Virus record (IMG/VR): IMGVR_UViG_3300034198_023937
Span: 1 to 31,292 of that record
Length of the DNA stretch: 31,292 nt
Direction: 5' to 3' (one strand)
From: a virus
Shown here: piece by piece, positions 5,240-29,528 of the stretch
Layout of the letters: each line of letters starts with the position of its first letter
Numbering within the stretch: position 1 is the stretch's first letter
Translations under genes and position numbers: made by a program
Notes under the pieces: model-generated
Told to the model about the DNA's origin: nothing
Seen by the model: only the letters and a program-made list of their open reading frames with translations
Databases searched by the model: none

Positions 5240-8200
5240 ATGATAAGTACAGGTTTCGAGCAAAGAGTAAAAATACAACAAATTATTGATAATCAACTTC
5301 CTGAGTTTATTTTGGATGAAAATCCAAAATTTTCAGAATTTTTGAAGCAATATTATATTTCTCAAGAATACCCCGGAGGTCCAGTTGATATTGCGGAAAA
5401 TTTAGATCAATATTTAAAATTTGACAACTTAACTCCAGAAGTTATTGCAGGTAATATTGGTCTTAGTACAAATATTACCTCCACTGTTGGAATCATTACA
5501 GTAACAAGTACCAAAGGATTTCCATCCCAATATGGATTGCTGAAGATCGATGATGAAATTATAACCTATACTGGAATTACTACAAACACTTTTACGGGAT
5601 GTATTCGTGGATTTTGTGGTATTGTAGATTACCACCAACCCATTAACCCAGAAGAACTTGAGTTCTCTACATCAAAAGCATCTTCACATAATGTACATTC
5701 TCCTGTCACTAATTTAAGTTCCTTATTTTTAAAAGAATTTTATAAAAAATTAAAATATTCATTTGCGCCAGGTTTTGAGGACGTTGCATTTGATTCAAAT
5801 TTAAAAGTTGATAATTTTCTAAAGAGGATAAAAGATTTTTATGCTTCTAAAGGTACAAATGAGTCTTTTAAAATTTTATTTAATGTTCTTTATAATGTTA
5901 ATCCAAAAATTTTAAATACTGAAGATTTTTTATTAAAACCATCTGAAAGTGAATATATTCGCAGAGAAGTTTTAATTGCAGAATTACTCACACCAGAAGC
6001 AAATCCATATAATCTTGTTGGAGAAGAAATCCGAAGTGATGATGGAAGTGCATCCGGACCAGTATCAAAAGTTGATATTATAACAAGAAATGGTAAAGTT
6101 TTATATAAAATTGAACTATTTTCTGGATACGATGATAATACTTTAGTTTTTGGAAAATTTGCAATTACTCCAAAAACTAAAGTATCAGATAATATTTCTA
6201 TAGGATCATCCGTCATAACAGTTGATTCTACTGTTGGTTTTGATATTAGTGGATCATTTATTTGTAATAATGATGTTATAACTTATAGTGATAAATCTAT
6301 TAATCAATTTTATGGATGTACCAATATACTGGAAAATATTTTAGCAGGATCAGACATACGTTCCGAAAAAATTATATATGGATATGAAAATGGTGATTTA
6401 TCTAAAAAAGTAGAATTAACAGTACAAGCATCTCTTTCAAATCTAGAAAATATTGATGATTTAAATTATTCTAATGTTGGTGATAATATTTTATTTGAAA
6501 ATTTTGGTGATAATATTTTAAATTCCAAAAATTCATTTAAAGAAATATTATTTAATTCATGGATCTATAATATCAGATCTAGATATGAAATATCCACATA
6601 TTCTAATGGTGATAATGCTGCTACAATAATTTTATACGAAAATCCAGATAAATCATCATTAAAAATAAATGATCGTGTTGATATTTTTAAACAAAATTCT
6701 ACAGATACTGTTTTAGAAAATGTTGTTATAACTTCAATTGATGGTAATAAAGTATTTTTAGACGCTAAAATTCCAGCAGTAATTCCTGGTCAAAAATTAA
6801 GCATAATTAGAAGATATGATTATGCATCAACTTCGGAAAATTCTGTAAGATTAAAATATCCCAATATCCTTTCAAATATACAAAATACTTATAATGAAAA
6901 CGAAGAATATATTTACGTTGCATCAAATTCTTTACCATCAAATACTATAGAAAAATCTATAAAAATTGCATCTAGGGATATAAATTCTAATGCTGATGTT
7001 GATAATTTTATCTCTGAGCAAAATAATCAAACTTTTAAATATTCAGTTTTAGTTTTTGCAAATAATGTCCCATTTATTACGGGAGACTCTGTAATTTATA
7101 CGCATACTACAAATGAACCAATCGCTGGACTTTCAAATAATACAGAATATTTTGTTGAAGTTTTGTCCAGTAAAACTAAAATAAGATTATATTCATCAAG
7201 ATCATTTATTGTAACTGAAGAATTTATAGAAATTGATAGAATTTATGATTTAGGAAATCATAAATTTACACTATCTTCCGAATTTGGAAAAATTTTGGCA
7301 CCAAAAAAATCTTTGGCCAAGTTTCCAATAAAACAAAATCTTAATTTTGATAATCAAATCTCAACAATACCAGGATCTGTTGGAACACTTATCAATGGTG
7401 TTGATATTATCAATTACAAATCAAATGATAAGATTTTTTATGGACCATTAAAAAATCTAAGAGTTATTAATAGTGGATTGGATTATGATGTCATAAATCC
7501 ACCAAAAATAATAATTTCCAATTCTAGTATCGGGTTGGGAACAACGGCATTGGCAAATGTTGTTGTTAGTGGATCAGTTAAAAACGTAATCATAGATCCA
7601 CAAAAAGTTTCCATTAAAAGAATTATATCTGCTAAAATATCTGGTGGAAATGGATCTGGTGCAATTTTAGATCCAGTATTATCATCACAATATAGAGAAA
7701 TTGAATTTGATGCTCGCCAGAGTACAAATTTTGGTGGGGTTAATGTAGATAATGAATCCATCCTTTTTTCAGAATATCATAAACTAAAAGATGGTCAAAA
7801 AATAGTTTACAATTCTAATGGAAATCCTGAACTTGGCATTGGAACTTTTAATGGTTCCAATACTCCTCAGGGAAAATATTTGAAGAACGGATCAGTATAT
7901 TATCCAAAAGTTTTAAATGCAAGAGCAATAAAACTTTATTATTCTCAGTCAGATTTAAACAGTGGAATCAATACAATTGGATTTACTCAAGAAAATACTG
8001 GAGGAATTCACAAATTTAGAGAATATGATGAAATTAAAGTATTATCTAAATTAAATGTTCTTGATGGTGGATTTGGATATACAAACAGGTCGTTGTATGT
8101 AAAATCTTCTGGAATTTCAACAATATCAAATACGATTAATTATGTTAATCATGGATTTAATGATGGGGAAATAATCAATTATTCCCACGAATCTGAAAAT

Positions 8201-11200
8201 CCAGTTTCAGGTCTTTCAACTTCTAAACAATATTATATTTTAAAAAATACGGATGATAGTTTTCAACTTTCAGATGCTGGATATATAAGTGTTGGAATAT
8301 CAAAAACAGATTATAATAGAAGAAAACCTGTTAAATTTGAGACAAATCCAACAGGATACCATATTTTTTCTTATCCAAAAATTTCTGTAGATTTGGAAGT
8401 TGAATATTCTGGATTTATCGGTACAATAACAGCAACTCCTGTAGTCAGGGGTAATATTATAGATACTTATCTATATGAATCTGGAACTAATTATGGATCA
8501 AATGTTCTAAATTTCCACAAAAAACCTACAATAACAATAAAAAATGGAAGTGGTGCTCAGTTAAAACCAATTATAATTAATGGTAGAATCGTTGCGGTTG
8601 AAATTCAAATTGGAGGATCTTTTTATCCATCTAGTATCAATTTGGATGTTTTTGGATCCGGATTGGGAGCAGAATTAAGAGCTGATATTGTAAAAGGAAG
8701 AATAAATTCTATAGTCGTCATTAATGGTGGAATTGGTTATGATGAAAATACACAAATTAAAATAAGTGTTCCTGGCAAAAATTTAAAATTAGATGTCTCT
8801 GTTAGAGAATTAACTATTAATAATATAGAGAGATTTTCTGACCAAATTTTAACGGATTATAATGGTGATTTGGCATATGGTGTATGTGGATATGTGCCAG
8901 GGAGAGAAGGAGTATTGTTCTTAGATCCAGATTCAAATACTGGGCATTCTAAAATTATTGGATGGTGTCGTGATGGTAATCCAATCTATGGACCATATGG
9001 GCATAGCGATCCAAGAAATTTTAATTCAGAAATTATTAAATTGCAGTCTGGATATTCCTTAAATATAGGAAATGTGGATAATAGACCTCCAATATCTGAT
9101 TTTTCTGAAGGATTTTTTGTCGAAGACTATACTTTTGAAGATTCTGGACAATTGGATAAAAGTAATGGTAGATTTGAAAAAACTCCAGAATTTCCACAAG
9201 GTGTGTATGCATATCATGTTGGAGTAAAAGTTGATCCAACTACTGGAAGTTTTATTCCAGAATTTCCTTATTTTGTAGGAGAATTTTATAGATCTAATAT
9301 TGAAGATAATTTTTATACAGATCAAAATATTAATTTTGATGATTCAGTATTAGTTAGAAATACTTTTCCATATAGAGTAAATAATGATTATTCTACAAAT
9401 GATTTTTTACCAAAAGTAAATAAAAAACTAAGACAAATAACCAAAATAAAATCTATTAAATCTGGAAAAATTGATTCTATAGATATTATTCAACCTGGTG
9501 AAGATTATTCGGTTGGAGATTCACTAACTTTTGACAACACTGGAACAGATGGTGGTGGATGTTATGCAGAGGTTTCCAAAATTTATGGCAAAGAAATTAA
9601 TAAAATAGAAACTTCTTTTAAAAATTATGAAAATACAATATTTACTTGGAAAAACAATAATACAATTTCTGCACATATATCTCCATATCATGAATTATTA
9701 GATGGTGATAGTGTTCAAATAACAGACATTTCAACATATACTTCTGGATTATCAAATAACCATAAAATATCCGTAAATCAATCAAATACAAGATTGGCAA
9801 AGGCAATGGCATCCAGTGGAATAGTAACTGACATATATGTTACAAATATTCCAGATGTTGTAAGTATTGGTAGTTCTATTGCTATTGAAAATGAAATTTG
9901 TTCAGTTCTCAATATATTTGATGAGCAAAATGTTATTAGAATTAATAGAGGATCCGTTGGCACTTCCCACACATCTTCAACAATAGTTAATGTATATTCA
10001 AATTATTTTGATATTAATTTGAGTGTTGATTATTTTGATTCTTCATTAAATGATATAGTTTATTTCAATCCAACAATTTCTATTGGAGTTGGTATTGATA
10101 CTGGATCTTCTATTAGTCGTGAGTATTATATTGGAGATTATAAGAAAGATATATCCATTCCAATACAGAGCATTTATTTACCAAATCATCCATTTAAAAC
10201 AAATCAGAGGGTTTTATTTTCTGGAAGTTCTGGGGGATCTAGCATCAATGTTTCCAATATTTCTGGTCCGTCTCAATTTTCTTTGGGAATCGGTACTCAT
10301 GTTTATATAATTAATAAGTCCAAAGATTTTATTGGAATAGTTACTCAAGTAGGTTTAACTACACAAACTGAGGGTTTATTTTTTACATCAAGTGGTAATG
10401 ATAAGTATAATTATAGTTTTTCTAGCATACCCAATCAAATATCAGGTTCAGTTAAAAAAATTGATGCAACAATAACAACATCAGAAAACCACGAGTTATT
10501 AGATTCTGATTATATTAATCTTATTATCAAACCAAATCTTTCTGTTGGTATTGGAACTTCTACTTCTATAAGGGTAAAGTATGAGGAAAATTATAACAAA
10601 CTTTTAATTAATCCCGTAGGATTTAATTCTAGTTCTGTTAATGTTAGTAGTAGTATTATAACTCTACCCTCTCACAATTTTAAAACTGGACAAAAAATAT
10701 TTTATAGTGCAATAGGAACTAAAATAAGTGGTCTAACTACTAGTGAATATTATGTGTATCGGACTAATAGTAATAACATCCAACTTTGTGAAACATATGT
10801 AGATTCAACCTCAAATCCACCAACAATTATTTCTATTGGAAGTAGTGGTGGGAATAATCAACAAATATCACAGATCAATCCAAGAATATTATCAATTAAG
10901 AATAATAATTTAGTTTTTAATCTTTCAGATTCTTCATTAATAGGATATAAATTTGAATTTTTCTATGACAAACAATTTAATAAGAATTTCGTTTCAGTAG
11001 CAAACACTTCCAATTTTACTGTTAGTAATAATACCAATAATGCCGGAATTGTAACAGAATCAACTATCAATTTTAGTGAAAATTTACCAAAAAATTTATA
11101 TTATAATTTAAGCAAAAATGGAATTCCAGTGTTTAGTAATGATGAGGATGAAGACTATCAAATTTCTTTTGTTGATGAGTTATATAATCAAGAATATAAA

Positions 11201-14200
11201 ATTTCTGGAGTTGGGAGTACAACTTTCCATGTCTCTTTAAATGAGATCCCACAAAAATTATCATATACGCAAAGTGAATGTGCATATTTAAAATATGAAA
11301 CTACGTCCAAGTCCACAAAAGGTGGAATATCAAATATAGAAATTTTAAATTCTGGTTATGGATATAAAAAACTTCCAAAAATTTCAAAAATTGAATCTAG
11401 AACTTTTGGAAAAAATTGCATTCTTGAATTAAATTCAAAATCTATAGGAAAAATTGGAAAAATTGAAATTGATAACAATGGATATGACTATCCATCAGAT
11501 AAATCTTTAAGGGCTCGTGCTCGGGTAGATGTTGTTGCTATTATAAGCAACAACGAAACAATTGAAGATATCAAAGTTTCAAATGGAGGGAAAAATATTA
11601 TATCTAAACCCGAATTACATTTGGTAAATACGGTTTCTAGAAAAAAAATACTTAATGGATTATTTGAGGTAAAGTTGGGTAAAAATAATATTAGTCAAGT
11701 CAATATTATACAAAAACCAACAGGTTTAGAATCGGTAACTCATCAAATTTTTACTATCAATAATAGTAATGGAATTTCGATAGAAGAAATTACCAGTGCC
11801 ACTGATGGAATTGTTGAATGTGTTATAAGAACTCCACCAATTACTGGATATACTGTTCCACCATTTGAGGTTGGTGATTTAGTATTTGTTGAGGGAATAG
11901 TAAAACCTTCTTCAAAAGACGAATTTGGAGTAGTAACTTATCCTGGAGATGGATTCAATTCTATTGATCATGGATACAATTTCTTTAAAGTTGTTGAATT
12001 TATCAATACAGATCCAGCAATTTTAAAATATGATATTAGTGAATATACTCTAACTCCGGGAAAAAATGAAGTTGACTTTTCATCATTTGTCCCATCGGGA
12101 TTTACTGCAATTACAAATATTAAAAATTGTCCAACATTTGAAATCACACAAGTGATAGATAATTTTATTGATAATGAAAATATAATTGTAAATGACAATA
12201 CAACAAATATTTTGATTAAAAAATCCTCAAATAATTCATTAAATATTTTAGATCCGGATAATCTTCTCAAAAATTATGACATTATAAGAGGTGTGTCATC
12301 TGGAGCAATTGCAACAATTTCTAGAGTATTCAAATACAATAATATAAGATATGCAATAGATTCTACAAATAAAAAAGAACTTGGGTGGAAAACTGATATT
12401 GGAAAATTAAACACTGATCTCCAAGTTACACCAGATAATGATTATTATCAAACATTATCATATTCTATCCAAAGTCCAATAGAATATGCAAATTTTGTAG
12501 GATACGCAAATAATCTTGTCCATCCTATTGGAACTAAAAATTTTGCGGATGTTGGTATTACTTCTGTTGGAATTACTTCTATAAAATCTAATCAAACTTT
12601 ACTAACTACATTAGACTTTGTGCAAGAGAAAAGAATTGATACGATTGATAATTTTGATCTAGTTACTGATTATAATCCAATTGGAAATTCTTCAACATTA
12701 ATAAGATTTAGAAATAAAAAACTTGCCGATTTTATTGAATGTATAAGTAATAGGGTTCTTCAAATAGATGATATTAGCAATTCTTTTTCCAGTTCAGAAT
12801 TCAATAAGGATACATTTTTAGATGCATATGAGTATCCAGTAATTGATTTTTATTCTAAATTTTTAGTTCAAATTTATGATAATGAGCAAGAAAATTACCA
12901 ACTTAGTGAAATTGTTATAATAAACGATTATAAAACAACATATACATTGAATAAATTGGATTTATATAATAATGAAATCCTAGGATCATTTAGTGGTGAA
13001 ATTGGTCCAGTTGGAGATCCTATTTTAAGATTCAATCCATCGGACCCATATAATAAAGGATATGAATTAAAAATATATAGAGAGTCATTTGATCCTGGCA
13101 CAAAAAATGTTGGAGTGGGATTCACCGATTATGGATTTGTTAGATTGAGTGGAAAAACAGAAAAGTTGGTCCCAGGAGTTGGAATTTCAACTACAATGTT
13201 TAGGGGTCTATTAAATCAATTTAATACAATTTTTTCAAGTTCTCTAATTATTGATACTGATAATAATAAACTAAATTATTATGAGGTAATAGGTTATCAT
13301 GATGGAGTAACTCCTAATATAGCCGAATTTTATTTTGATTCTGAACAATCAATTAGTGGATTATCTGGAAGTTATATTGGAACTTTTGGACTAAATGTTT
13401 CTGGTGGCATATTAAATTTATCCTTTTTTAGTAATAAAAATAACAATATCGTAGTAAAAACAAAAACTGTTGGATTTGGAACTACTGCTGGTGGAATTGG
13501 CACTTATAGATATTTGGTTGATGATCAAATTCCAGGAACTGAACAAACAACAAGATTGGAATCGGATTATAAAATTATAACAGGAATAACAACAATTAAA
13601 ACTTTTGATAGTTCCATTGAATCTTCATTAAAGTCCTTAATAAGAGTTGGTATTGGATCAACTGTTGCATTGCACCAAGTTTCTGTTATAGCAAATCAAG
13701 TATCAAATAATATTCAACATTATCCATTTATATCTATAGGGTCTACTTCAGGAATTGGTACATTTTCAACTGAAGTTCAAGGTCTAAATGTTTCGGTAAA
13801 ATTTCACCCAGACAGTCAGTTTCAAAATAGTCAAATATTAGTTCAAAGTTTTGATCAATTCATATATTCATCTCTTGATGAGTTTAATATTCCGGACGAA
13901 TTAATTTATGGAACATCTATAGAAAAATTTTCAATTAATAGATATGGATCCATAAACAATTTTGGTAAAGATAGATTAAATTTTGATTTAAATTATAATA
14001 GAACTCCAATTTTTCAAAAAACATTTAATCCAACAAGTTTGAGTACATTAAATAAAGCAACTGGAATATTTACAATCAATAATCATTTTTTCCAAAATAA
14101 TGAGGAATTAATATACACTCCAGATTCAACCTTAATTGGAATTGCCGCATCTTCCGTGGGAATTGGTACTACTATTGTTGGTGGAAATTCTATTGAAGGT

Positions 14201-17200
14201 GACTTTATTATTGGGTTTTCCACAATAACTGGTATAAGCAACATTGATGGTATTGTGGTAGGAAATCAAATTTCTGGAAAAAGTATTACAAACAATACTA
14301 CTATTGTAAGTATTGGTCAAACTTATTCATATTTTATTGGAAATGTTTCTTCCGGATCATCTGTTATTACGGGAATTGCAAATACTTCAATATTAACTGT
14401 TGGGGCAGGAATCTTTTCCGGAAATAACAACTCTTTAGGAACAATTGTAAGTATTGGAATAAATTCTATCACAGCATCCGCATCAATTGCTGCTGGAGGA
14501 TTGAATAGAATTTACTATACAAATACACTCAGATCTTCACTAAAATTATCCAATGTTTCTACAGCATCTACATTTAGGGAGATTTACGCTGTTGGAATTT
14601 TAACAGATATATGCCCATCTAAAGTTTATGCCATAACAATAGATGAGAATAGATTTAAATTGAAAGGAGTTTCTGGACCAAGTGGAATTGGATTTACATT
14701 TACTTCAACAGGATCTGGAAATTACCACAGACTTGAAATGAAGAAAAAGAATGAAAAGTCACTAATTACTGTCAATGGAGTAAATCAATATCCATTAACT
14801 TATACTCCTCTAGTAGGAATAATAACAGGAAATATTGGAAATTTAGTAAGTATTGGAGCATCATTTATTGGGGTATCGGGAATATCTTCAATAATGTCCA
14901 ATGATATTATCAAAGTAGAAGATGAGTATATGACAATTTCAAATGTTGGATTTGGTACAACTGTTACTGGTCCAATTACTGGAATTGGAACAATTCCTAT
15001 AGTTGAAGTCCAACGTGGTAAACTTGGATCAACAGAATCAAATCATTATGATGGATCAAATTTTAGAATTTACAAAGGATCTTATAATATTGTTGGTAAT
15101 GAAATTTGGTTTGCAGATGCTCCAGATGGTAAGGCAAATAATGATAGACTTTTGAGCAATTATCTATTATCACCAAAATCAACATTTAATGGTAGAACTT
15201 ATTTGAGAAAAGATTATACCAACAATCAAATATATGATGACATTTCTTCCAGTTTTACTGGGGTAGGAAGAACATTTACCTTATATAAGGAAGGCAATAC
15301 TGTCTCAAATGCAGTACCTGGAAATAATTTAATTTTTATTAATGATGTGTTCCAAACACCCGATACTGAAAATAATAATGGAAACAATTATGAAATTTTA
15401 AATTCTGGAATATCTAGCGTATCATTTAGTGGAACAAAAGGACTTTTAGCTAATCCAAGTGAAATTTTAATTGTTGGAAATGATGTAAATCAAAATTTAG
15501 TTCCAAGAGGAGGATTAATAGTTTCCCTGGCATCAACTGGAGGAATTGGATATGCACCTCTAGTTGGAGTTTCATCATCAATGTTGGATGTTAGGATAGG
15601 TGCCGGAGGATCAATTTCTTATATTGGATTTACATCTTCAATTATAGTTGGAATTGCTACAACAGGAACCATTGGGATAACAACAGATAGAATAACTGGA
15701 ATTACAACTCTCAGTGTCCGTGTTAATCAAAAAATTACTGACATATTATCTACACAAAAGTCTGGAAATATTATCCCAAATATTACCAAAATACTACCAT
15801 TCGATACCAGAGTATCCTCTATTGGAGTTGGTACAGTATTTTTAACTAAAGTATCAACAAATGTAAGTTCCATTTCAACTTCATTTGGATTTGATATTGG
15901 TCCAATATATGGTTCTGGATATAACAAATCTACTATTTCAATTGGAATTACTGATTCAAATCATACTGGAACTCAGGCATCAATTACTGCAACTGTTGGT
16001 AATGGTGGATCCATTACTTCATTTAATATTAATAATGGTGGAACAGGATATGTAAGTCCCTTGGTTTCAATATCTGACCCATCCTATGAAAATTTATCAA
16101 TTCAACCTATAAGTAGAATTGGTACAAATAATCCAAATACATTGGGAGTTGGATTATCAATAACAGTAGATATTGGTCCAAATTTTAAAAACGTTGGAAT
16201 TGGAACAAGTTATTTTGCAATAAAATCATTTGAAATTAAAAAACCTGGTTATGGATTTCAATTAGGTGACACTTTTTCATTAGTTGGATTAGTAACAGAT
16301 TCTAGACTTGCTTCACCAATAGAAAAATTAATTTTTACTGTCGATGACGTAAGAACGGACAGTTTTGCATCTTGGCAACTTGGAGAATTTGATTTTATTG
16401 ATAATATTAAAGAGTTACAAAATTCTGTTAGAAAAAGATTTCCTTTATATAAAAATAATCAATTGCTGAGTTTTGAGAAAAAAATTGGTAGTAATATTGA
16501 TTATGATGCACTATTATTAATTTATATAAATGGTGTTATGCAAGAACCGAGTATTTCATATCAATTTGATGGGGGAACGTCATTCAAATTTACTGAAGCA
16601 CCAAGATTTGAAGATAATATTGCAATTTTCTTCTATAGAGGTACTGCAGGAGATGACAGTAAAGAAACCAATATAATTCCATCAATTAAACCGGGAGATA
16701 CTGTACAAATTAAAGAAAATCCCCAAATTATATCAACAATTTCTCAAAATCCAAGAATAGCATCATTTATTGTATCCTCAGATGTTCTTGAAACGGGCAT
16801 ATACCTTGATGAAGGTATTGATGAGACTAACTTGAAACCATTATCTTGGACTAAGCAAAAAACTGATTTAATTATCAATGATGTTATTCAGTATAAAGAA
16901 AGAGATTCCTTAGAGTCTTTAATATTTCCTACTGCAAAAATTATTAAATCAATAGATTCTTCCAGTACAGATATTTTTGTAGATAATGCACAATTTTTTA
17001 ATTATGAGGAAAATTCTGGTGCTGGAACAATTAATAAAGTCAATGCTTTGGTCATTTCAGGTAATGAACCATCATTTGCAGATATAAGTGCAAATGTTTC
17101 TACTGGACAAACTACAATTTCATCATTAACAATCAATAATGGTGGAAGTGGTTACAATTATGTTGGTGCAGGAAGTAGTGTTCAACTTAAATTGAGGTCT

Positions 17201-17899
17201 ATTGTTGGTTTGGGAGGAAGTGATGCTATCATTTATGCCCCAATTTCAAGTGCAGGAACAATAACTACACCATTCAATATAATAAGTTCTGGATATGGAT
17301 ATACATCTTCAAATGTACCTGAGGTTATTGCACCAACTCCAAGTCCAAGTAAAGAATTGATTAGTAATATTACTTATGTTCAAGGATTTTCTGGCATAAT
17401 AACTGGAATTGCTACATGTGCTGGAATAGGAACGGATCTTGCAATTAAATTTTATGTCCAATATGATCAGAATGATGCATCAAAAGTATCTGATTTGCTT
17501 AGTGATAGTCAATATCCAATATTAGTTTTTGATTCTACGGTTGGTAAAGGTACAACTTCTATTGATAAACTGAATAGTGCTGTTGTTGGTATTGGGACCA
17601 CATTTGTAGATAATATTTATTATGCACATTCCGTTTATTTAAATAATTTGGTGGGAATCATCACATGTAATATACATTCAAATACTGATTGTGTTGGTAT
17701 AGGCAGCACCTTTGGTTCCAAAATTTGTGGTAGATTTTCTTGGGGAAGATTGAGTTTATTCAATAGATTATCATCTTCACCAATATCTATTAATCTTAAC
17801 AATTATACAGTAAATTCTGGACTTACATCATATCCAACTATACAAAGAAGAAATTATGGATTGAGAGATACTGGTGCTATCGTAAAAGATTTTGATTAA
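5240..17899 (+). CDS. Giant baseplate protein in the gp7 position, with YHYH-type domain
   Basis: A single uninterrupted frame encodes 4219 residues (T4 gp7 has 1032). It lies between gp6 and gp8, where T4 has the wedge scaffold gp7. Residues 1-230 (start MISTGFEQRVKIQQIIDNQLP, helix-rich FLKEFYKKL to ILFNVLY at about 164-219) look like the gp7-type anchor of cyanophages. About 1205-1355 is a YHYH-type domain: the DGNPIYGPYGH block near 1240-1257, then LDKSNGRF, TPEFPQGVYAYH and FPYFVGEFYR. The rest is beta-rich: GxGY repeats near residues 739, 940, 1157, 1413, 2030, 2071, 3594, 3960 and 4014; 'GL.....YYV' modules near 625, 986 and 1827; 'E-I-x-x-Y ... RG' modules near 95, 1547 and 3222. Gly-Ile-Gly-Thr is very frequent from about 1600 onward. 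No transmembrane helix or protease motif is evident. A receptor-binding or baseplate-extension role is inferred. Confidence 0.82.
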   Translation: MISTGFEQRVKIQQIIDNQLPEFILDENPKFSEFLKQYYISQEYPGGPVDIAENLDQYLKFDNLTPEVIAGNIGLSTNITSTVGIITVTSTKGFPSQYGLLKIDDEIITYTGITTNTFTGCIRGFCGIVDYHQPINPEELEFSTSKASSHNVHSPVTNLSSLFLKEFYKKLKYSFAPGFEDVAFDSNLKVDNFLKRIKDFYASKGTNESFKILFNVLYNVNPKILNTEDFLLKPSESEYIRREVLIAELLTPEANPYNLVGEEIRSDDGSASGPVSKVDIITRNGKVLYKIELFSGYDDNTLVFGKFAITPKTKVSDNISIGSSVITVDSTVGFDISGSFICNNDVITYSDKSINQFYGCTNILENILAGSDIRSEKIIYGYENGDLSKKVELTVQASLSNLENIDDLNYSNVGDNILFENFGDNILNSKNSFKEILFNSWIYNIRSRYEISTYSNGDNAATIILYENPDKSSLKINDRVDIFKQNSTDTVLENVVITSIDGNKVFLDAKIPAVIPGQKLSIIRRYDYASTSENSVRLKYPNILSNIQNTYNENEEYIYVASNSLPSNTIEKSIKIASRDINSNADVDNFISEQNNQTFKYSVLVFANNVPFITGDSVIYTHTTNEPIAGLSNNTEYFVEVLSSKTKIRLYSSRSFIVTEEFIEIDRIYDLGNHKFTLSSEFGKILAPKKSLAKFPIKQNLNFDNQISTIPGSVGTLINGVDIINYKSNDKIFYGPLKNLRVINSGLDYDVINPPKIIISNSSIGLGTTALANVVVSGSVKNVIIDPQKVSIKRIISAKISGGNGSGAILDPVLSSQYREIEFDARQSTNFGGVNVDNESILFSEYHKLKDGQKIVYNSNGNPELGIGTFNGSNTPQGKYLKNGSVYYPKVLNARAIKLYYSQSDLNSGINTIGFTQENTGGIHKFREYDEIKVLSKLNVLDGGFGYTNRSLYVKSSGISTISNTINYVNHGFNDGEIINYSHESENPVSGLSTSKQYYILKNTDDSFQLSDAGYISVGISKTDYNRRKPVKFETNPTGYHIFSYPKISVDLEVEYSGFIGTITATPVVRGNIIDTYLYESGTNYGSNVLNFHKKPTITIKNGSGAQLKPIIINGRIVAVEIQIGGSFYPSSINLDVFGSGLGAELRADIVKGRINSIVVINGGIGYDENTQIKISVPGKNLKLDVSVRELTINNIERFSDQILTDYNGDLAYGVCGYVPGREGVLFLDPDSNTGHSKIIGWCRDGNPIYGPYGHSDPRNFNSEIIKLQSGYSLNIGNVDNRPPISDFSEGFFVEDYTFEDSGQLDKSNGRFEKTPEFPQGVYAYHVGVKVDPTTGSFIPEFPYFVGEFYRSNIEDNFYTDQNINFDDSVLVRNTFPYRVNNDYSTNDFLPKVNKKLRQITKIKSIKSGKIDSIDIIQPGEDYSVGDSLTFDNTGTDGGGCYAEVSKIYGKEINKIETSFKNYENTIFTWKNNNTISAHISPYHELLDGDSVQITDISTYTSGLSNNHKISVNQSNTRLAKAMASSGIVTDIYVTNIPDVVSIGSSIAIENEICSVLNIFDEQNVIRINRGSVGTSHTSSTIVNVYSNYFDINLSVDYFDSSLNDIVYFNPTISIGVGIDTGSSISREYYIGDYKKDISIPIQSIYLPNHPFKTNQRVLFSGSSGGSSINVSNISGPSQFSLGIGTHVYIINKSKDFIGIVTQVGLTTQTEGLFFTSSGNDKYNYSFSSIPNQISGSVKKIDATITTSENHELLDSDYINLIIKPNLSVGIGTSTSIRVKYEENYNKLLINPVGFNSSSVNVSSSIITLPSHNFKTGQKIFYSAIGTKISGLTTSEYYVYRTNSNNIQLCETYVDSTSNPPTIISIGSSGGNNQQISQINPRILSIKNNNLVFNLSDSSLIGYKFEFFYDKQFNKNFVSVANTSNFTVSNNTNNAGIVTESTINFSENLPKNLYYNLSKNGIPVFSNDEDEDYQISFVDELYNQEYKISGVGSTTFHVSLNEIPQKLSYTQSECAYLKYETTSKSTKGGISNIEILNSGYGYKKLPKISKIESRTFGKNCILELNSKSIGKIGKIEIDNNGYDYPSDKSLRARARVDVVAIISNNETIEDIKVSNGGKNIISKPELHLVNTVSRKKILNGLFEVKLGKNNISQVNIIQKPTGLESVTHQIFTINNSNGISIEEITSATDGIVECVIRTPPITGYTVPPFEVGDLVFVEGIVKPSSKDEFGVVTYPGDGFNSIDHGYNFFKVVEFINTDPAILKYDISEYTLTPGKNEVDFSSFVPSGFTAITNIKNCPTFEITQVIDNFIDNENIIVNDNTTNILIKKSSNNSLNILDPDNLLKNYDIIRGVSSGAIATISRVFKYNNIRYAIDSTNKKELGWKTDIGKLNTDLQVTPDNDYYQTLSYSIQSPIEYANFVGYANNLVHPIGTKNFADVGITSVGITSIKSNQTLLTTLDFVQEKRIDTIDNFDLVTDYNPIGNSSTLIRFRNKKLADFIECISNRVLQIDDISNSFSSSEFNKDTFLDAYEYPVIDFYSKFLVQIYDNEQENYQLSEIVIINDYKTTYTLNKLDLYNNEILGSFSGEIGPVGDPILRFNPSDPYNKGYELKIYRESFDPGTKNVGVGFTDYGFVRLSGKTEKLVPGVGISTTMFRGLLNQFNTIFSSSLIIDTDNNKLNYYEVIGYHDGVTPNIAEFYFDSEQSISGLSGSYIGTFGLNVSGGILNLSFFSNKNNNIVVKTKTVGFGTTAGGIGTYRYLVDDQIPGTEQTTRLESDYKIITGITTIKTFDSSIESSLKSLIRVGIGSTVALHQVSVIANQVSNNIQHYPFISIGSTSGIGTFSTEVQGLNVSVKFHPDSQFQNSQILVQSFDQFIYSSLDEFNIPDELIYGTSIEKFSINRYGSINNFGKDRLNFDLNYNRTPIFQKTFNPTSLSTLNKATGIFTINNHFFQNNEELIYTPDSTLIGIAASSVGIGTTIVGGNSIEGDFIIGFSTITGISNIDGIVVGNQISGKSITNNTTIVSIGQTYSYFIGNVSSGSSVITGIANTSILTVGAGIFSGNNNSLGTIVSIGINSITASASIAAGGLNRIYYTNTLRSSLKLSNVSTASTFREIYAVGILTDICPSKVYAITIDENRFKLKGVSGPSGIGFTFTSTGSGNYHRLEMKKKNEKSLITVNGVNQYPLTYTPLVGIITGNIGNLVSIGASFIGVSGISSIMSNDIIKVEDEYMTISNVGFGTTVTGPITGIGTIPIVEVQRGKLGSTESNHYDGSNFRIYKGSYNIVGNEIWFADAPDGKANNDRLLSNYLLSPKSTFNGRTYLRKDYTNNQIYDDISSSFTGVGRTFTLYKEGNTVSNAVPGNNLIFINDVFQTPDTENNNGNNYEILNSGISSVSFSGTKGLLANPSEILIVGNDVNQNLVPRGGLIVSLASTGGIGYAPLVGVSSSMLDVRIGAGGSISYIGFTSSIIVGIATTGTIGITTDRITGITTLSVRVNQKITDILSTQKSGNIIPNITKILPFDTRVSSIGVGTVFLTKVSTNVSSISTSFGFDIGPIYGSGYNKSTISIGITDSNHTGTQASITATVGNGGSITSFNINNGGTGYVSPLVSISDPSYENLSIQPISRIGTNNPNTLGVGLSITVDIGPNFKNVGIGTSYFAIKSFEIKKPGYGFQLGDTFSLVGLVTDSRLASPIEKLIFTVDDVRTDSFASWQLGEFDFIDNIKELQNSVRKRFPLYKNNQLLSFEKKIGSNIDYDALLLIYINGVMQEPSISYQFDGGTSFKFTEAPRFEDNIAIFFYRGTAGDDSKETNIIPSIKPGDTVQIKENPQIISTISQNPRIASFIVSSDVLETGIYLDEGIDETNLKPLSWTKQKTDLIINDVIQYKERDSLESLIFPTAKIIKSIDSSSTDIFVDNAQFFNYEENSGAGTINKVNALVISGNEPSFADISANVSTGQTTISSLTINNGGSGYNYVGAGSSVQLKLRSIVGLGGSDAIIYAPISSAGTITTPFNIISSGYGYTSSNVPEVIAPTPSPSKELISNITYVQGFSGIITGIATCAGIGTDLAIKFYVQYDQNDASKVSDLLSDSQYPILVFDSTVGKGTTSIDKLNSAVVGIGTTFVDNIYYAHSVYLNNLVGIITCNIHSNTDCVGIGSTFGSKICGRFSWGRLSLFNRLSSSPISINLNNYTVNSGLTSYPTIQRRNYGLRDTGAIVKDFD

Positions 17900-17931: not shown

Positions 17932-19482
17932 ATGTCTGCGATTGTTACCGATCAATTTAGAATATTAAATTGTAAAAATTTTGTGGATTCTGTTCAAGAT
18001 CCAAACAATTCTTATTATGTATTTTTAAGTCTTCCCAATCCAAGTGATGTTGGATTTGGAAGATCTGAGACATGGGATTCTAATACTCCACCACCAATAG
18101 ATAGTCTTGATTATTTGAATCATATAAAGGATACTATTATTTTTGGTAGAAAAATTACACCAAATAATATTAGAAGATTGATTAGAAGGGTTGATTGGAC
18201 TGCCAATACCATTTATGAATTGTACAGACATGATTATAGTGTATCAAATCCATCCCAAAGAACAAGCGCATACAGGCTATATGATGCAGAATATTATGTT
18301 ATTAATAGTGACTATAGAGTTTATATTTGTATTGACAATGGATCTTCTCCAGTGTATCCTTCAGGAAGACCATCACAAGATGAACCAAAGTTTGTCGATT
18401 TGGAACCATCAAGAGCTGGAGAAAGTAATGATGGTTATATTTGGAAATACTTATTCACAGTAAATCCCAGTGATATTATTAAATTTGATTCTATAGATTA
18501 CATCCCCATACCAAATGATTGGGCAACTAGCGATAATTCAGAAATAGTTGCAGTTCGAGATTCTGCAGATTCCTCAGTAAATTATAATCAAATTAAAAAA
18601 GTTTATATTGAAAGATCCGGAAGTGCGTATAACGTAACAGACAGTCAATTAGATATAATTGGTGATGGTGAAGATGGTAAAGTAATAGTTGATGTGGTTG
18701 ATGGAAAAATAAATGATGTTATAGTTTCTAGTGGTGGTAGAGGATATACTTATGGTAGAGTAGATTTATCCTCCATAAATCAAAACGCAACTTCTTTTGC
18801 TCATCTAATACCAATTATTCCACCATCTCTTGGGCATGGATATGATATTTACACAGAACTTGGGTCCGATAAATGTTTAATTTACGCAAGATTTGATGAT
18901 TCGACAAAAGATTTTCCACTGGATACTACATTTGCACAAATTGGAATCATAAAAAATCCAACGATTGTTGGATCTTCAAGTTCAATATTTACTGAAAATA
19001 CATTTTCAAGTGTAACTGGATTAAAACTAACTGCAATAACAAATTCGGGAGATGCAATTCCAGGAACTACAATCTATCAAGCAATATCTGGAGTTGGTAC
19101 GGCAATTGGATATATTGCATCATACGACGATGAAACAACAGTTTTAAAATATTTTGCAGATAGATCTTTATTTTACAATAAAACTTACTATAATCAGATA
19201 GATAGTAAAACTGTTAGCTCAGAATCAGTTAAAATAGGATTTTCGACTGCTGGAGGTATTATTTCCGCAGGTAATTTTGAAGCATCTATTCAAAATTTTA
19301 GTGGAATTGTAACAGCAGTTTCTCCAACAAAAACAGTTAGACTAGATTCAACTTTTACAAAAGGCATCTCCCTTCCCGAAATAAATAAATCATCAGGAGA
19401 AATTGTATATCTTGATAATCGTCCTCTTGTAACTAGAAATCCAAGACAAAAGGAAGATATTAAAATCGTACTAGAATTCTAA
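17932..19482 (+). CDS. 8: Baseplate wedge protein gp8, enlarged
   Basis: The product has 516 residues; T4 gp8 has 334. The N-terminal half fits cyanophage gp8: DQFRILNCKNFVDSV at the start, then YYVFLSLPNP, the IIFGRKITPNNIRRLIRRVDW segment (about residues 69-85 onward) and SNDGYIWKYLFTVNPSD (about 164-180). In T4, gp8 dimers bind gp10, gp7 and gp6 in the wedge. About residues 218-290 hold two copies of the GxGY-type beta repeat (IKKVYIERSGSAYNV and INDVIVSSGGRGYTYG), absent from the T4 protein as I know it. With the extra C-terminal beta region this accounts for the length. The gene has its own late promoter. Confidence 0.85.
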   Translation: MSAIVTDQFRILNCKNFVDSVQDPNNSYYVFLSLPNPSDVGFGRSETWDSNTPPPIDSLDYLNHIKDTIIFGRKITPNNIRRLIRRVDWTANTIYELYRHDYSVSNPSQRTSAYRLYDAEYYVINSDYRVYICIDNGSSPVYPSGRPSQDEPKFVDLEPSRAGESNDGYIWKYLFTVNPSDIIKFDSIDYIPIPNDWATSDNSEIVAVRDSADSSVNYNQIKKVYIERSGSAYNVTDSQLDIIGDGEDGKVIVDVVDGKINDVIVSSGGRGYTYGRVDLSSINQNATSFAHLIPIIPPSLGHGYDIYTELGSDKCLIYARFDDSTKDFPLDTTFAQIGIIKNPTIVGSSSSIFTENTFSSVTGLKLTAITNSGDAIPGTTIYQAISGVGTAIGYIASYDDETTVLKYFADRSLFYNKTYYNQIDSKTVSSESVKIGFSTAGGIISAGNFEASIQNFSGIVTAVSPTKTVRLDSTFTKGISLPEINKSSGEIVYLDNRPLVTRNPRQKEDIKIVLEF

Positions 19483-22400: not shown

Positions 22401-25400
22401 ATATTGGTGATTTATATACTGCAAATAGTTATGATTCTGAAAGATTTAAATTTGACATTCCACTACTAAAAAATCAGTTAAGAGCATCTGATACTTTTGA
22501 TCTCAGACCAAGAGTATCACAATTTACTTCAATTTCAAAATCACCTTTTGCATTTTCTAGTAGGAACTTTTCAGAATCTGGTGTTAATCCGCCATTAGTT
22601 GTAGCGCCAAATGAAAGTTCTTCTGTTGGTTATTCGTATTATGTGCCCAGAATTGATAAACTTATTTTAGATAAATCTGGAGATTTTAAACTAATTAAGG
22701 GGATAGCAACATCAAATCCTAAGGAACCAGAATCTTCACAAGATTCTATGGATATTGCCACAATTAAAATACCAGCATATGTTTATAATGTAGATGATAT
22801 TTCAATTTCATTGATTGAAAATAAACGATATACTATGAAAGATATTGGGAAATTGGATGACAGAATTAAAAATTTAGAGAATTTAACATCACTAAGTTTA
22901 ATAGAATTGGATACAAAATCTTTACAGATTACTGATGCAGATGGTTTATTAAAATTTAAATCTGGATTTTTTGCAGATAATTTTAGAGATAATAAATTTA
23001 TAGATATTGCCAATCAAGATTCTAATAGTACTGTTAATACATCATTAGAAGAATTAACTTCAGATATTTCCATATATTCACTAAAATCTAAAATTTATCC
23101 TAATGAAACAGTTAATTCTGAATCGGAAGATTTTTCGGCAAATATAAGTTTATTGGATCCAAATATTAAAAAAACTGGAGACTTATTAACACTCAATTAT
23201 TCTGAAGTGGAGTGGGGAGATGTATCTCAGTTATTTGCAACTAAAAAAGAATCTATAAATTTATCCGGTCTTACTGATTATAATGGATATGTAAAATTAA
23301 GACCATCTTCAGATGCGTGGGTAAGAACTATTAATACGGATGGAAAAGTAATTATTAAATCCCAAAGTGAATGGAAGGATTCATTTATTTCAAATTTAAT
23401 TTCTAGTAGCAAATCTAACAATAAGATAAGATCAAGAAATATAGAATTTACTGTTGGTAATCTTTGCCCAAATACACAATATTACTCTTCATTGGATAGT
23501 AGAAATGATATTGATATAATTCCAAAACTTTTACAAGTCTCAATGATAACTGGAGTTTTCCAGTCAGGTGAAATTGTTGAGGGATATATTGGATCAGAAA
23601 AGATGGCATGTTTCCGTCTATCAAATACTGATCACAAATTTGGACGATATAATTTGCCGGATGAAGTATATTCAGAAAATCCATATTCACCGTCCAATAT
23701 ATTAAATTCATATTCACAATCATCTTCAATTTTAAATATAGATACTTATTCCTTATCAGATGATTCTGATGGAAGATTTTATGGATATACACCATTTGGG
23801 ATGATTTTGGTTGGAAAAACTAGTAAAGCTCAGGCAACAGTATCAAATCAATCTTTAATTTCTGATAGTGTTGGAGATTTAATTGGATGCTTGTTTATTA
23901 AAGATCCATTATCAAATCCAACTCCACAAACAACATTTAATGTGGGGACAAAAACATTTAGAATATCCCAGACATCAGCATTCAATTCTACATCAAAAGT
24001 AAACTACTGTGAAACAAATTTCTACATTAACGGATCTCCACAATCTTATACTAATAATTTTATCATTAGGAGACCAGTTTTATCAAAATCTTTTAAAAAT
24101 ATAACAAAAGATCCCCTTACTCAAACATTTAGAACTGATAATTCTGGAGGATTTTTAACATCCCTAGATTTATTTTTTGCCGAAAAAGATGCTTCTGAGA
24201 AATTAACTATTGAAATTAGGGAGGTAGATCTCGGAGGTTCTCCCACAAACAATGTTGTTCAAGATTTTTCCAGAGTTCAAATTCTCCCTAGTAAAATCAC
24301 AATTTCTGCGGACGGAGAAACTCCAACAAATATTAAACTACCATCTCCACTTTATTTGGAACCAAATAAACAGTATGCAATTTCATTAAATTCACCATCT
24401 TCTCAAAAGTATAAAGTCTGGATTGCCGAATCAAATAAACCAACTGTTACAACACAAAATTATCCTTATACCTTACAAGTAATATATTCGAATCAATACG
24501 TTGGTGGAAATCTTTACAAACCACAAAATGGAACAACACCAATCTCAAGTCCATTTGAAGACTTAAAATTCAGGTTATACAAAGCAAAATTCTCAAGTAA
24601 ATCTGGAACTGCATATTTTACGAATCCAGATCTTTCTGGAAGTGGAACTGGAGATGATTATGACTTTAATATTCAAAAATTAACAAACAACCCAATAACA
24701 ATGTACCCAAGAAAATTAATTGTGGGTATTTTGACAAGCACAAATTTGAGCAATATTTTAACTGTTGGCACAAAAGTTGCTGAAGGTACAAAATATGGGT
24801 ATATTGAAAAAGTTGGAGGTAACATATTAGGAATTTCGACTTCAAATGTTGGAACTGGATATTCTTCTGGGGCATATACTTCAGTACCATTATATACTAT
24901 AACTGGATATGGAAGCAGTGCTACTGCAAACATCACTTTTGCTTCTAACGGAACAGTCTCTGTAGTTTCAATAGCAAATACTGGAAGTGGATATGCGGTT
25001 GGTGATTTACTTGGAATTACAACAAGTTCAGTTTCTAAAGGTAGAGGAGCAACTATATCAGTTTCTTCCATAAACACCATAGATACTTTACGATTAACAA
25101 ATGTCAAAGGTTATACATTTACTACAGGAAATTCTATAGGATATTATGATGGTAATACTTTGGTTGCTTTATCTGGAACAACAGTAAGAGGTACTTCTTC
25201 GATTGTAAATGATTTGTATAGTGGAGATATTATTAAAGTAAATCAATATAATCATGGAATGCATTCCTCAGGTAATATGGTTACAATAAGTGGAGTATTT
25301 CCAGATACTGTTCCAGAAAAACTAACAGTTGCGATAGTACCATCATCTCTAACAATAAGTGTGGCAAATACTGCAACATTCACAACATTTGAAGGAAGCG

Positions 25401-26547: not shown

Positions 26548-26745
26548 ATGATACCAATTAACAATCATAAAAATTTATTTCGGGATGAAAATTCTGGTGC
26601 TATTGTAAATGGTGATAGATATGAATATTTGCAATATGTTAAAATTAAAAATGAAAAGAAAAAGCAAAAAAATGAAATAGATGATATTAAAAAGGAATTG
26701 GATGAAATTAAATCTTTATTAAAGGAGTTATTACGTGGAACCTAA
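26548..26745 (+). CDS. Small coiled-coil protein, 65 residues
   Basis: The ATG at 26548 lies five bases after the giant's stop. The 65-residue product has a short N-terminal part (MIPINNHKNLFRDENSGAIV) and then one long charged helix (KIKNEKKKQKNEIDDIKKELDEIKSLLKELL) with heptad-spaced Ile/Leu, so it should form a coiled coil. The N-terminal 'FRDENSGAIVN' pattern is one I recall from small cyanophage tail-region proteins. It overlaps the next gene by 11 bases and supplies that gene's Shine-Dalgarno. It is likely a small structural or assembly factor; this is inference. Confidence 0.78.
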   Translation: MIPINNHKNLFRDENSGAIVNGDRYEYLQYVKIKNEKKKQKNEIDDIKKELDEIKSLLKELLRGT

Positions 26746-26905
26746 AGAAATTAAATTAGATTCTATAGATAAATTATTCGAATATGAAAAACAATGTAGA
26801 ATTATTGATGATTTAAATATTGATGAATTAAAAAAATTTTCAAAACTGTATTGCAAATTATACTTAAGTCAGCAAGAGGTTATTGGTAATCTTGGCAAAA
26901 TGTAA
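26735..26905 (+). CDS. Small protein with GTG start, 56 residues
   Basis: A GTG at 26735 opens a 57-codon frame ending at TAA 26903-26905. The start is supported by AAAGGAG at 26721-26727, seven bases upstream, the strongest ribosome binding site in the tail region. The protein reads MEPKEIKLDSIDKLFEYEKQ, then LNIDELKKFSKLYCKLYLSQQEV, and ends GNLGKM. It is predicted to be all-helical, with two Cys. It overlaps the coiled-coil gene by 11 bases, so translation is probably coupled. The pair may act together. I recognise no family. Its stop is one base before the late promoter at 26907. Confidence 0.75.
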   Translation: MEPKEIKLDSIDKLFEYEKQCRIIDDLNIDELKKFSKLYCKLYLSQQEVIGNLGKM

Positions 26906-26906
26906 A

Positions 26907-26914
26907 TATAAATA
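26907..26914 (+). promoter_or_regulatory. T4-type late promoter for the neck operon
   Basis: A perfect TATAAATA lies 24 bases before the ATG at 26939 and one base after the stop of the previous small gene. It would drive the 114-residue protein, gp13, gp14, gp15 and gp16. Confidence 0.82.
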
Positions 26915-26938
26915 TACTGTAGAGTATGTTCTCTAATA

Positions 26939-27283: not shown

Positions 27284-28128
27284 TGTCTAAACCAGCAAGC
27301 AAACAGCAATTAGTAGATTACTGCCTTAGAAGACTGGGAGCTCCAGTTTTGGAAATTAATGTTGACGAAGATCAAATAGATGATCTTGTTGATGATGCAT
27401 TACAATATTTTCATGAGAGACATTTTGATGGTGTTGAAAGAATGTTTCTCAAATATCAAATTACGCAAGAAGATATTGATAGGGGAAGTGCAAGTGCAAA
27501 AAGTCCTAGAGGATCTGGGATAACTACAACAACAGGATCATCAACAATTAATGGAGTTTCTAAAACATTTAATTTTTACGAATCTTCTAATTATATACAA
27601 ATTCCAGATTCTGTGATTGGAGTTGAAAAGATTTTTAAATTTAATTCTAGTACTATTTCCTCTGGAATGTTTAGTATTAAATATCAATTATTTTTAAATG
27701 ATTTATATTATTTTAATTCCATTCAATTATTGCAATATTCTATGGTTAAATCATATCTTGAGGATATTGATTTTCTTTTAACAACAGATAAGCAAATAAG
27801 ATTCAATAAAAGGCAGAATAGATTGTATTTGGACTTTAATTGGGAGGGAAATAATCCAGGAGATTTCCTTGTCATAGATTGTTATAGAATTTTGGATCCA
27901 AATGATTTTACTAAAGTATGGAATGATAGTTTTTTAAAGAAATATCTAACTAGTCTGATTAAAAAACAATGGGGTCAAAATCTTATTAAGTTTAGGGGAG
28001 TTAAACTTCCTGGTGGAATTGAACTTAATGGAAGAGAAATTTATGAGGATGCCGAAAGAGAATTGTCAGAAATTAGAGACAGAATGACTACAGATTATGA
28101 ATTACCACCTTACGATTTTATTGGATAA
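27283..28128 (+). CDS. 13: Neck protein gp13
   Basis: The product has 281 residues; T4 gp13 has 309. The start PASKQQLVDYCLRRLGAPVL and EINVDEDQIDDLVDDALQYFHERHFDG (about residues 24-50) is the characteristic gp13 N-terminus of T4-like phages. A Ser/Gly-rich linker (about 73-90) is followed by QIPDSVIGVEKIF (about 106-118) and a conserved C-terminal helical region with TSLIKKQWGQNLIKFRGVKLPGG (about 223-245). gp13 and gp14 form the head-completion neck joining portal and tail. Both gene ends are TAATG overlaps, giving coupled translation with its neighbours. Confidence 0.9.
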   Translation: MSKPASKQQLVDYCLRRLGAPVLEINVDEDQIDDLVDDALQYFHERHFDGVERMFLKYQITQEDIDRGSASAKSPRGSGITTTTGSSTINGVSKTFNFYESSNYIQIPDSVIGVEKIFKFNSSTISSGMFSIKYQLFLNDLYYFNSIQLLQYSMVKSYLEDIDFLLTTDKQIRFNKRQNRLYLDFNWEGNNPGDFLVIDCYRILDPNDFTKVWNDSFLKKYLTSLIKKQWGQNLIKFRGVKLPGGIELNGREIYEDAERELSEIRDRMTTDYELPPYDFIG

Positions 28129-29528
28129 TGGCACTCAATCCTTTCTTTTTACAGGGATCTCCTGGAGAACAACGTCTTGTACAAGACTTAATTAATGAGC
28201 AACTTAAAATATATGGGGTTGAAGTTTCATATATTCCAAGAAAATTTGTAAGAAAAAATACAATTTTGAGAGAAGTTACTTCTTCTAAATTTGATGATAA
28301 TTTTTCAATAGAAGCATATGTAGCAAACTATGATGGATATAGTGGATCTGGAGATATTTTAACCAAATTTGGAATGAGTCTAAGGGATGAGGTTACTTTA
28401 ATTATATCTAGAGAAAGATTTGAAGATTTTATATCCCCATTTTTGGAGGGTATGGATGATGATGAAATAATTTTATCAACCCGCCCAAGAGAGGGTGACA
28501 TAGTTTATTTTCCTTTGGGTAAAAGATTATTTGAAGTTAAATTTGTAGAGCACGAGCAACCTTTTTACCAATTAGGTAAAACTTATGTTTATGAGTTGAA
28601 GTGTGAATTATTTGAATATGAGGACGAAGTTGGTGGAGACAATGATTCAAATACTACTATTGAAGAAATAGATTCAGTATTGCAAACTCAAGGTTATATA
28701 ACATCTTTAAAATTATTTGCAACTGGACAACGAGCAACTGCTTCAGCAGGAATTTCAAGTGGATATGTTAGAAAAGTTATTTTGTCCAATGATGGATATG
28801 ATTATGTTGGAATTCCAACCGTTTCATTTACTCCAGCACCTACGGGTGGTATAACAGCATCTGCAGTTGCAATAACTACGTGTAAAGGTGGAGTTTGTTC
28901 TATCAAAGAGATATTATTAGTTAATCCAGGATCTGGATATACAGCAACTCCAACTGTGACAATATATGCCAATGGAAGTGGTTCTGGGGCAGATGCTACC
29001 TGCGATTTAGTCAAAGGTTCGTATGGTGTTGGTATAGTCGGAATACAAACGTATGGTCAGGGGTACGCAACAGCGCCAGTCATAACGTTTAGTCCTCCTC
29101 CAGTAGGAACTGGGGTAACTGCACGGGGAAGGGTTGTTGTAGGGGCAGCAGGAAGCATTACACAGGTTCTTATTTTAGATGCTGGAATAGGATATACTTC
29201 ATCCCCATCTATAACTATAGATCTTCCACCTCTCATAACTGGTATTGGTACTTATACATTCAATGAGATTGTTACTGGATCCATTTCTGGTACAAAATCT
29301 AGAGTTAAATCTTGGGATAAAGATACCAATATTCTTCAAGTCGGAGTAATTGATGGTGCATTTATTCCTGGAGAAATTATAGTTGGATCCGGATCTTCGG
29401 CAACATATACCTTACAACTCACATCTCAAAGTGAATTTGCGGATAAATATGAACAAAACGACGAAATAGAAGAAGCAGCAGATCTAATTTTAGATTTCTC
29501 AGAATCAAATCCATTTGGTAACTACTAA
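28128..29528 (+). CDS. 14: Neck protein gp14 with internal beta-repeat insertion
   Basis: The product has 466 residues against 256 in T4. The first about 165 residues fit gp14: ALNPFFLQGSPGEQRLVQDLINEQL at the start, VSYIPRKFVRKNTILREV, then the FPLGKRLFEVKFVEHEQPFYQLGKTYVYELKCELFEYEDE block (about 126-167). Residues about 205-370 are four GxGY repeats near 213, 258, 299 and 347, about 44 residues apart, each like 'xxIxxxGxGYxxxPxVTI' (for example LLVNPGSGYTATPTVTIYA). Removing them leaves roughly 300 residues, close to the T4 size, so they look like an insertion before the C-terminal end (SEFADKYEQNDEIEEAADLILDFSESNPFG). The gene overlaps gp13 and gp15 by TAATG. Confidence 0.88.
   Translation: MALNPFFLQGSPGEQRLVQDLINEQLKIYGVEVSYIPRKFVRKNTILREVTSSKFDDNFSIEAYVANYDGYSGSGDILTKFGMSLRDEVTLIISRERFEDFISPFLEGMDDDEIILSTRPREGDIVYFPLGKRLFEVKFVEHEQPFYQLGKTYVYELKCELFEYEDEVGGDNDSNTTIEEIDSVLQTQGYITSLKLFATGQRATASAGISSGYVRKVILSNDGYDYVGIPTVSFTPAPTGGITASAVAITTCKGGVCSIKEILLVNPGSGYTATPTVTIYANGSGSGADATCDLVKGSYGVGIVGIQTYGQGYATAPVITFSPPPVGTGVTARGRVVVGAAGSITQVLILDAGIGYTSSPSITIDLPPLITGIGTYTFNEIVTGSISGTKSRVKSWDKDTNILQVGVIDGAFIPGEIIVGSGSSATYTLQLTSQSEFADKYEQNDEIEEAADLILDFSESNPFGNY

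What the first reader, a model, noticed from the sequence alone, without database searches (positions are those of the whole stretch)
7440..29240. One GxGY beta repeat is spread over four neighbouring tail genes
Segments like 'xxIxxGGxGYxxxPxV' occur about ten times in the giant, twice in gp8, twice in the 2351-residue protein and four times in gp14. For gp8 and gp14 the copies are inside the chain and explain most of the excess over the T4 lengths. The same unit therefore appears to have been copied into proteins at different places in the virion (baseplate, periphery, neck). It may serve as a common adhesion or glycan-binding surface, or a docking site for a shared decorating protein.
Basis: partly seen in the sequence, partly recalled or inferred. 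Interest (0 to 1): 0.65.

Follow-up and report, generated by a model that had tools for sequence, protein, structure and literature searches.

The report
Shared beta-module across phage tail proteins
Four neighbouring tail proteins of a marine cyanobacterial virus carry copies of the same ~40-residue beta building block, which also sits in the sheath, hub and fibres of relatives and in secreted bacterial proteins, so it is an old, widespread, uncatalogued protein module rather than a quirk of this virus.

Summary
Confirmed and extended. The window is a T4-like cyanophage tail cluster. A profile seeded only with gp14 units, checked against reversed ORFs, finds copies in gp14 (4), the 4219-residue gp7-slot protein (12), gp8 (2) and the DUF4815 protein (2). 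Profile-profile comparison joins the four families (E 1e-4 to 1e-12; reversed controls >0.04). The unit is about 40 residues with three strands; AlphaFold models gp14 190-430 and giant 1100-1178 with the same pattern at pLDDT around 90. Two units probably make one six-stranded domain. In three complete cyanophage genomes all 62 matches lie in virion genes (also hub gp5, sheath gp18, fibres). T4-like sheaths carry 4 to 10 units starting at residue ~98, where the outward-facing Domain I of T4 gp18 begins. The copies are old: each position clusters with its own orthologues (210/210), so nothing was copied recently. The unit also occurs in bacterial and archaeal secreted proteins and has no Pfam, NCBIfam or PDB sequence match. 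gp14's array is missing in S-PM2 with flanks intact. For gp8 the copies explain only ~80 of 182 extra residues. Function (weak adhesion, fibre docking, or spacer) is inferred, not shown.

The parts
7451..7570 (+). giant unit, aa 738-777 (weak partner follows to aa ~820)
   Evidence: 27 bits; giant 733-820
8045..8113 (+). giant unit, aa 936-958 (partial)
   Evidence: 6 bits, weak
8450..8575 (+). giant unit, aa 1071-1112
   Evidence: E 1e-11 to gp14 array
8582..8683 (+). giant unit, aa 1115-1148, modelled as part of a six-strand domain
8696..8773 (+). giant unit, aa 1153-1178
9464..9571 (+). giant unit, aa 1409-1444
   Evidence: 25 bits
11321..11398 (+). giant unit, aa 2028-2053
11447..11560 (+). 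giant unit, aa 2070-2107
   Evidence: weak; 2023-2159, E 1e-6
15911..15997 (+). giant unit, aa 3558-3586
16007..16084 (+). giant unit, aa 3590-3615
17114..17182 (+). giant unit, aa 3959-3981
   Evidence: 3941-4035, E 6e-8
17273..17341 (+). giant unit, aa 4012-4034
18586..18699 (+). gp8 unit 1, aa 219-256
18700..18825 (+). gp8 unit 2, aa 257-298
24818..24946 (+). DUF4815 protein unit 1, aa 1778-1820
24947..25069 (+). DUF4815 protein unit 2, aa 1821-1861
   Evidence: (29 bits)
28761..28883 (+). gp14 unit 1, aa 212-252
28896..29015 (+). gp14 unit 2, aa 257-296
29022..29144 (+). gp14 unit 3, aa 299-339
29151..29276 (+). gp14 unit 4, aa 342-383

Best explanation
The GxGY segment is the visible core of a ~40-residue, three-stranded beta unit (GxIxxIxVxnxGxGYxxxPxIxIxxxxGxGAxaxaxV). 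Two units probably close into one six-stranded domain. It is an old, mobile accessory module inserted into permissive, probably solvent-facing loops of many virion proteins of T4-like cyanophages: neck gp14, wedge gp7-slot giant and gp8, the DUF4815 protein, hub gp5, sheath gp18 and fibres. SHOWN: shared ancestry of the copies, old positional orthology, clean presence/absence in gp14, presence at the Domain I site of T4-like sheaths, wide occurrence in secreted cellular proteins. INFERRED: outer-surface exposure in every host protein, and the role. Most likely role: accessory surface modules giving weak, multivalent contacts with host envelope or extracellular polymers while the virion approaches and orients, the part proposed for phage Ig-like domains. 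I give the identity and architecture about 0.85 and this particular role about 0.4.
For: Gp14-seeded profile joins the proteins against reversed decoys. Profile-profile: gp14 array vs giant E 3e-8 to 7e-12, vs DUF4815 2e-6; giant segment vs gp8 1e-11; reversed controls 0.04 or worse. Same strand order in both AlphaFold models. All 62 matches in P-SSM2, S-SRM01 and S-PM2 lie in virion genes; none in KVP40 or P-SSP7, one weak in T4 (in gp18) (annotations 12, 13, 18, 19, 40-43, 54, 55). gp14 array absent in S-PM2 with both flanks conserved. Sheath proteins with the array, homologous to T4 gp18 over full length (E 3e-52), carry mostly 4, 8 or 10 units from residue 97-98, in length classes about 80 residues apart; T4 Domain I starts at 98 and faces outward (PMC3004832). 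Even copy numbers prevail (81 vs 22 and 80 vs 29 ORFs). Cellular carriers include a Bacteroidetes lipoprotein and multicopper oxidases, which fits a general extracellular module. Fold search finds many virion proteins with the same fold.
Against: No binding data of any kind. No model of the assembled virion, so exposure in gp14, gp8 and giant is not shown. The gp14 core was modelled poorly (pLDDT <50), so the array's placement on the neck is unknown. Conserved positions are mainly glycine, tyrosine and hydrophobic, as expected for fold alone; no binding site was identified. Strict gp14-only profiles failed. gp14 units are moderately conserved (0.65 vs 0.83 in the core), not hypervariable as in receptor-binding tips.
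Confidence: 0.6

Rival explanations
1. Docking sites: the modules hold retracted tail fibres or a shared decoration protein against neck, sheath and baseplate, as T4 gp18 Domain I does for long tail fibres.
For: Units occupy the Domain I site in T4-like sheaths. In T4 Domain I binds the baseplate and retracted long tail fibres, and G106S, S175F and A178V there block fibre retraction (PMC3004832). If numbered without the first Met these residues fall in T4 GSNY and SSGLAA, which resemble the unit's GxGY and GxGA. Domain I is the only Pfam model touched by unit members (2 of 43, E 0.06), and T4 gp18 had the highest probability (0.66) among the listed PDB fold matches of gp14.
Against: Homology of T4 Domain I to the unit is not established: profile-profile E 0.005-0.25, while Domain II, a control, scored as well or better; the giant model did not match gp18. 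Secreted bacterial carriers have no fibres to dock.
Confidence: 0.22
2. Structural spacers: the modules only enlarge or stiffen the virion proteins and have no binding partner.
For: Conserved residues are those needed for the fold; copy number changes in pairs; found in unrelated proteins including oxidases.
Against: The gp14 array keeps exactly four units in the sampled close relatives and its motif residues are 90-100% conserved in 41 sequences; a pure spacer would be freer to vary.
Confidence: 0.3
3. Chance or low-complexity similarity: glycine-rich beta segments that converge on GxGY without common descent.
For: Unit is short and G/S/T/N rich; strict profiles fail to join the copies.
Against: Reversed sequences with the same composition give no comparable scores; alignments span two or more units; models agree.
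Confidence: 0.04

Closest known systems
T4 gp18 Domain I (Pfam PF22639 Gp18_dom_I; PDB 3FOA, 3FO8)
   Same: Same site in T4-like sheath proteins, similar size to two units, six-stranded barrel, GSNY and SSGLAA segments resembling the two motifs
   Different: Sequence homology not significant; T4 has a helix where the second GxGY loop would be and only one such domain per sheath subunit
Ig-like accessory domains of phage tail and capsid proteins
   Same: Mobile beta modules added to unrelated virion proteins, gained and lost, proposed weak adhesion (PMC9230969)
   Different: No Ig or fn3 Pfam match in any unit-bearing window protein; 40-residue three-strand repeat with GxGY/GxGA, not a ~90-residue Ig fold
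PHROG virion families 701, 708, 5342, 2885, 17885 (structural, wedge, fibre)
   Same: Their profiles match the gp14 array (E 4e-13 to 3e-7)
   Different: They are whole-protein families; the shared unit is not defined as a family of its own there
Beta-strand repeats of bacterial and archaeal secreted proteins (e.g. L354, L387)
   Same: Same unit by profile, up to 21 copies
   Different: Cellular, extracellular; no Pfam or NCBIfam model covers the repeat

Membership tests
T4 gp14 neck protein (PF11649) | Conserved N-terminal core | tested here: met
   residues 4-185, E 3.5e-29; PDB gp14 E 1e-22
Gp18_dom_I (PF22639) | Profile match above the curated cutoff | tested here: not met
   2 of 43 units, best E 0.06; no match for unit-bearing sheaths
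Gp18_dom_I (PF22639) | Position in sheath after Domain III N-terminal part | tested here: met
   arrays start at residue 97-98 in most T4-like sheaths L589-L668; applies to sheaths only, not to the window proteins
Gp18_dom_I (PF22639) | Six-stranded barrel fold | tested here: inconclusive
   six strands per two units in the models; Foldseek to T4 gp18 prob 0.66 for gp14 with region not reported, none for giant
Ig-like phage accessory domain | Ig fold or Ig/fn3 profile match | tested here: not met
   no Ig or fn3 model in the window proteins or unit members
Ig-like phage accessory domain | Modular presence/absence in unrelated virion proteins | tested here: met
   gp14 of S-PM2 lacks the array; many virion genes
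Carbohydrate-binding module | Demonstrated sugar binding | not testable with these tools
   needs binding assays

The most novel reading that the evidence does not exclude
T4 gp18 Domain I is itself a diverged two-unit copy, and cyanomyoviruses have spread this module over neck, sheath, wedge and hub as a virion-wide docking surface for retracted fibres, so one fold organises fibre storage along the whole tail.
Probability: 0.15. Interest if true: 0.75.

Novelty: new member of a known kind. Interest (0 to 1): 0.5.

Why it matters
A beta module that recurs in marine phage tails and in secreted prokaryotic proteins has no Pfam or NCBIfam model and no solved sequence relative. Defining it would correct annotations (gp7-slot and fibre proteins labelled 'neck protein' or 'head closure' through the repeat), explain most of the extra length of gp14, and give a testable target: sheaths with 4 to 10 units at the place where T4 docks its fibres.

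Tried and rejected
Profile from the four window gp14 copies only: not above decoys. Default-weight gp14 unit profile: too specific, found only gp14. PDB sequence search with the unit profile: only spurious hits plus a weak T4 gp18 match. Homology of T4 Domain I by hhalign with narrow and broad sheath sets: not significant, and Domain II control equal or better. Foldseek of the giant segment vs PDB: no meaningful match. Recent duplication: rejected. My first split of genome and viral loci was wrong and is corrected.

Full report
WHAT THE WINDOW IS. The 31,292-base record is an IMG/VR virus contig. It holds the tail cluster of a T4-like cyanophage: gp25, gp6, a 4219-residue protein in the gp7 slot with a YHYH domain, gp8 (516 aa), a 2351-residue DUF4815 protein, gp13, gp14 (466 aa) and gp15. 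The nearest named relatives by gp14 are Synechococcus phage S-SRM01 (60%) and Prochlorococcus phage P-SSM2 (54%), both Kyanoviridae with the same gene order.

CHECK OF THE OBSERVATION. The motif is far above shuffled expectation. After iteration the window has 4 copies in gp14, 12 in giant, 2 in gp8 and 2 in DUF4815. Because iteration could drift, I tested the families by profile-profile alignment with orthologue alignments: gp14 array vs giant E 3e-8 at 1073-1179, 6e-8 at 3941-4035, 1e-6 at 2023-2159; vs DUF4815 2e-6 at 1778-1879; vs gp8 2.5e-4; giant 1040-1205 vs gp8 1e-11 and vs DUF4815 8e-7; all reversed controls 0.04 or worse. The refutation condition 'a profile failing to join the copies' is therefore not met.

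SHAPE OF THE UNIT. The full unit is GxIxxIxVxnxGxGYxxxPxIxIxxxxGxGAxaxaxV, about 40 residues. AlphaFold on gp14 with 41 sequences gives pLDDT around 90 for residues 190-430 with three strands per unit; the gp14 core was poorly modelled. An independent model of giant 1040-1205 gives six strands at 1104-1176, pLDDT mostly above 90, in the same order. Copy numbers favour pairs: 81 even vs 22 odd ORFs among genome loci and 80 vs 29 among viral loci, and sheath arrays come in length classes differing by about 80 residues. I infer that two units form one domain. These counts include related sequences and missed copies, so the binomial values are not strict.

WHERE IT OCCURS. In P-SSM2 (17 matches), S-SRM01 (21) and S-PM2 (24), every match lies in a virion gene: gp14, gp7-slot giant, gp8, DUF4815, hub gp5, sheath gp18 (S-PM2), structural and tail fibre genes. 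HTVC008M has copies in its gp7-slot protein and gp8, phiM12 in gp8 and gp7; KVP40 and P-SSP7 have none; T4 has one weak match, in gp18 (E 0.008); PSS2 one weak match. The array in gp14 is a clean module: S-PM2 gp14 (292 aa) runs from the equivalent of residue ~177 to ~372 without it. A pattern scan found the unit in 97 of 115 prokaryote loci and 100 of 120 viral loci (E <1e-5, no reversed ORF below 0.5); the loci were picked by a core motif, so these fractions are not frequencies. Cellular carriers include a Bacteroidetes lipoprotein with 15 units and multicopper oxidases of Neobacillus and a Dehalococcoidia MAG. No Pfam, NCBIfam or PDB sequence family covers it.

HISTORY. Copies are equally diverged within and between proteins (aa 29 vs 28%, nt 47 vs 46%). 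In a tree of 210 units from 15 positions, every unit's nearest neighbour is the same position in another phage. The spread is old and no gene conversion is visible. 'Copied into four genes' is right only as an ancient event.

THE SHEATH CONNECTION. Eighty T4-like sheath loci (L589-L668) carry unit arrays, most starting at residue 97-98. A subset of 38 aligns with T4 gp18 over the full length (E 3e-52), with the array at the T4 Domain I site. In T4, Domain I (98-188) is a six-stranded barrel plus helix, faces outward, makes no sheath-sheath contact, binds the baseplate and retracted long tail fibres, and three mutations in it block fibre retraction (PMC3004832). Counting without Met, these residues are the glycine of GSNY and residues of SSGLAA, which look like the unit's two motif loops. 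I tested whether Domain I is itself two units and could not show it: hhalign is not significant and a Domain II control scored better; Foldseek gave T4 gp18 probability 0.66 for gp14 but nothing for giant; Pfam Gp18_dom_I touched 2 of 43 units at E 0.06. So the shared site is shown, the shared origin is a lead. IME-SM1 and S-PM2 sheaths have units at another site.

MECHANISM. Placement at the outward site of the sheath, occurrence in unrelated virion proteins and in secreted cellular proteins point to an extracellular accessory module. I commit to weak multivalent surface contact as the most likely role (about 0.4), ahead of inert spacer (0.3) and docking of fibres or decoration (0.22). None of these is shown here.

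NOVELTY. Mobile accessory beta domains in phage structural proteins are known, mainly Ig-like (PMC9230969). This is a different, unnamed family with a wide reach within one virion. Full-text searches for the core sequence and for related descriptions found nothing, but the library lacks most subscription papers.

Noticed in passing
L256:13436-16486 (HTVC008M I899_gp055): Annotated 'head closure Hc2', but the gp14 core does not match it (E 0.5) while the giant family does (1e-9) and the gp14 repeat array does (2e-6); the label probably came through the shared repeat.
   Followed up: yes
Synechococcus phage ACG-2014h, KF156338.1 / NC_023587.1 90695-91057: The same gene is called 'neck protein' in one record and 'tail fiber protein' in the other; the gp14 array matches it.
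   Followed up: no
window 2260-2601: ORF matches the S-adenosylmethionine decarboxylase gene just upstream of gp25 in S-SRM01 (E 2e-61); a polyamine gene next to tail genes.
   Followed up: partly
window 952-1707: 251-aa ORF conserved at the same place in P-SSM2 (PSSM2_106) and S-SRM01 (gp186), function not annotated.
   Followed up: partly
window 1-2000: G+C is 45% here against about 29% in the rest.
   Followed up: no
window 26548-26905: Two small overlapping ORFs (65 and 56 aa) between the DUF4815 gene and the next gene, with short tandem repeats.
   Followed up: no
window 24098-24610 (DUF4815 protein aa 1538-1708): Matches the solved DUF4815 protein 9euf (E 2e-29); the two GxGY units follow about 70 residues after this region.
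   Followed up: no
BFVD A0A3G5AH46: A protein of Sylvanvirus, a giant virus of eukaryotes, is among the fold matches of the gp14 model (E 2e-6).
   Followed up: no
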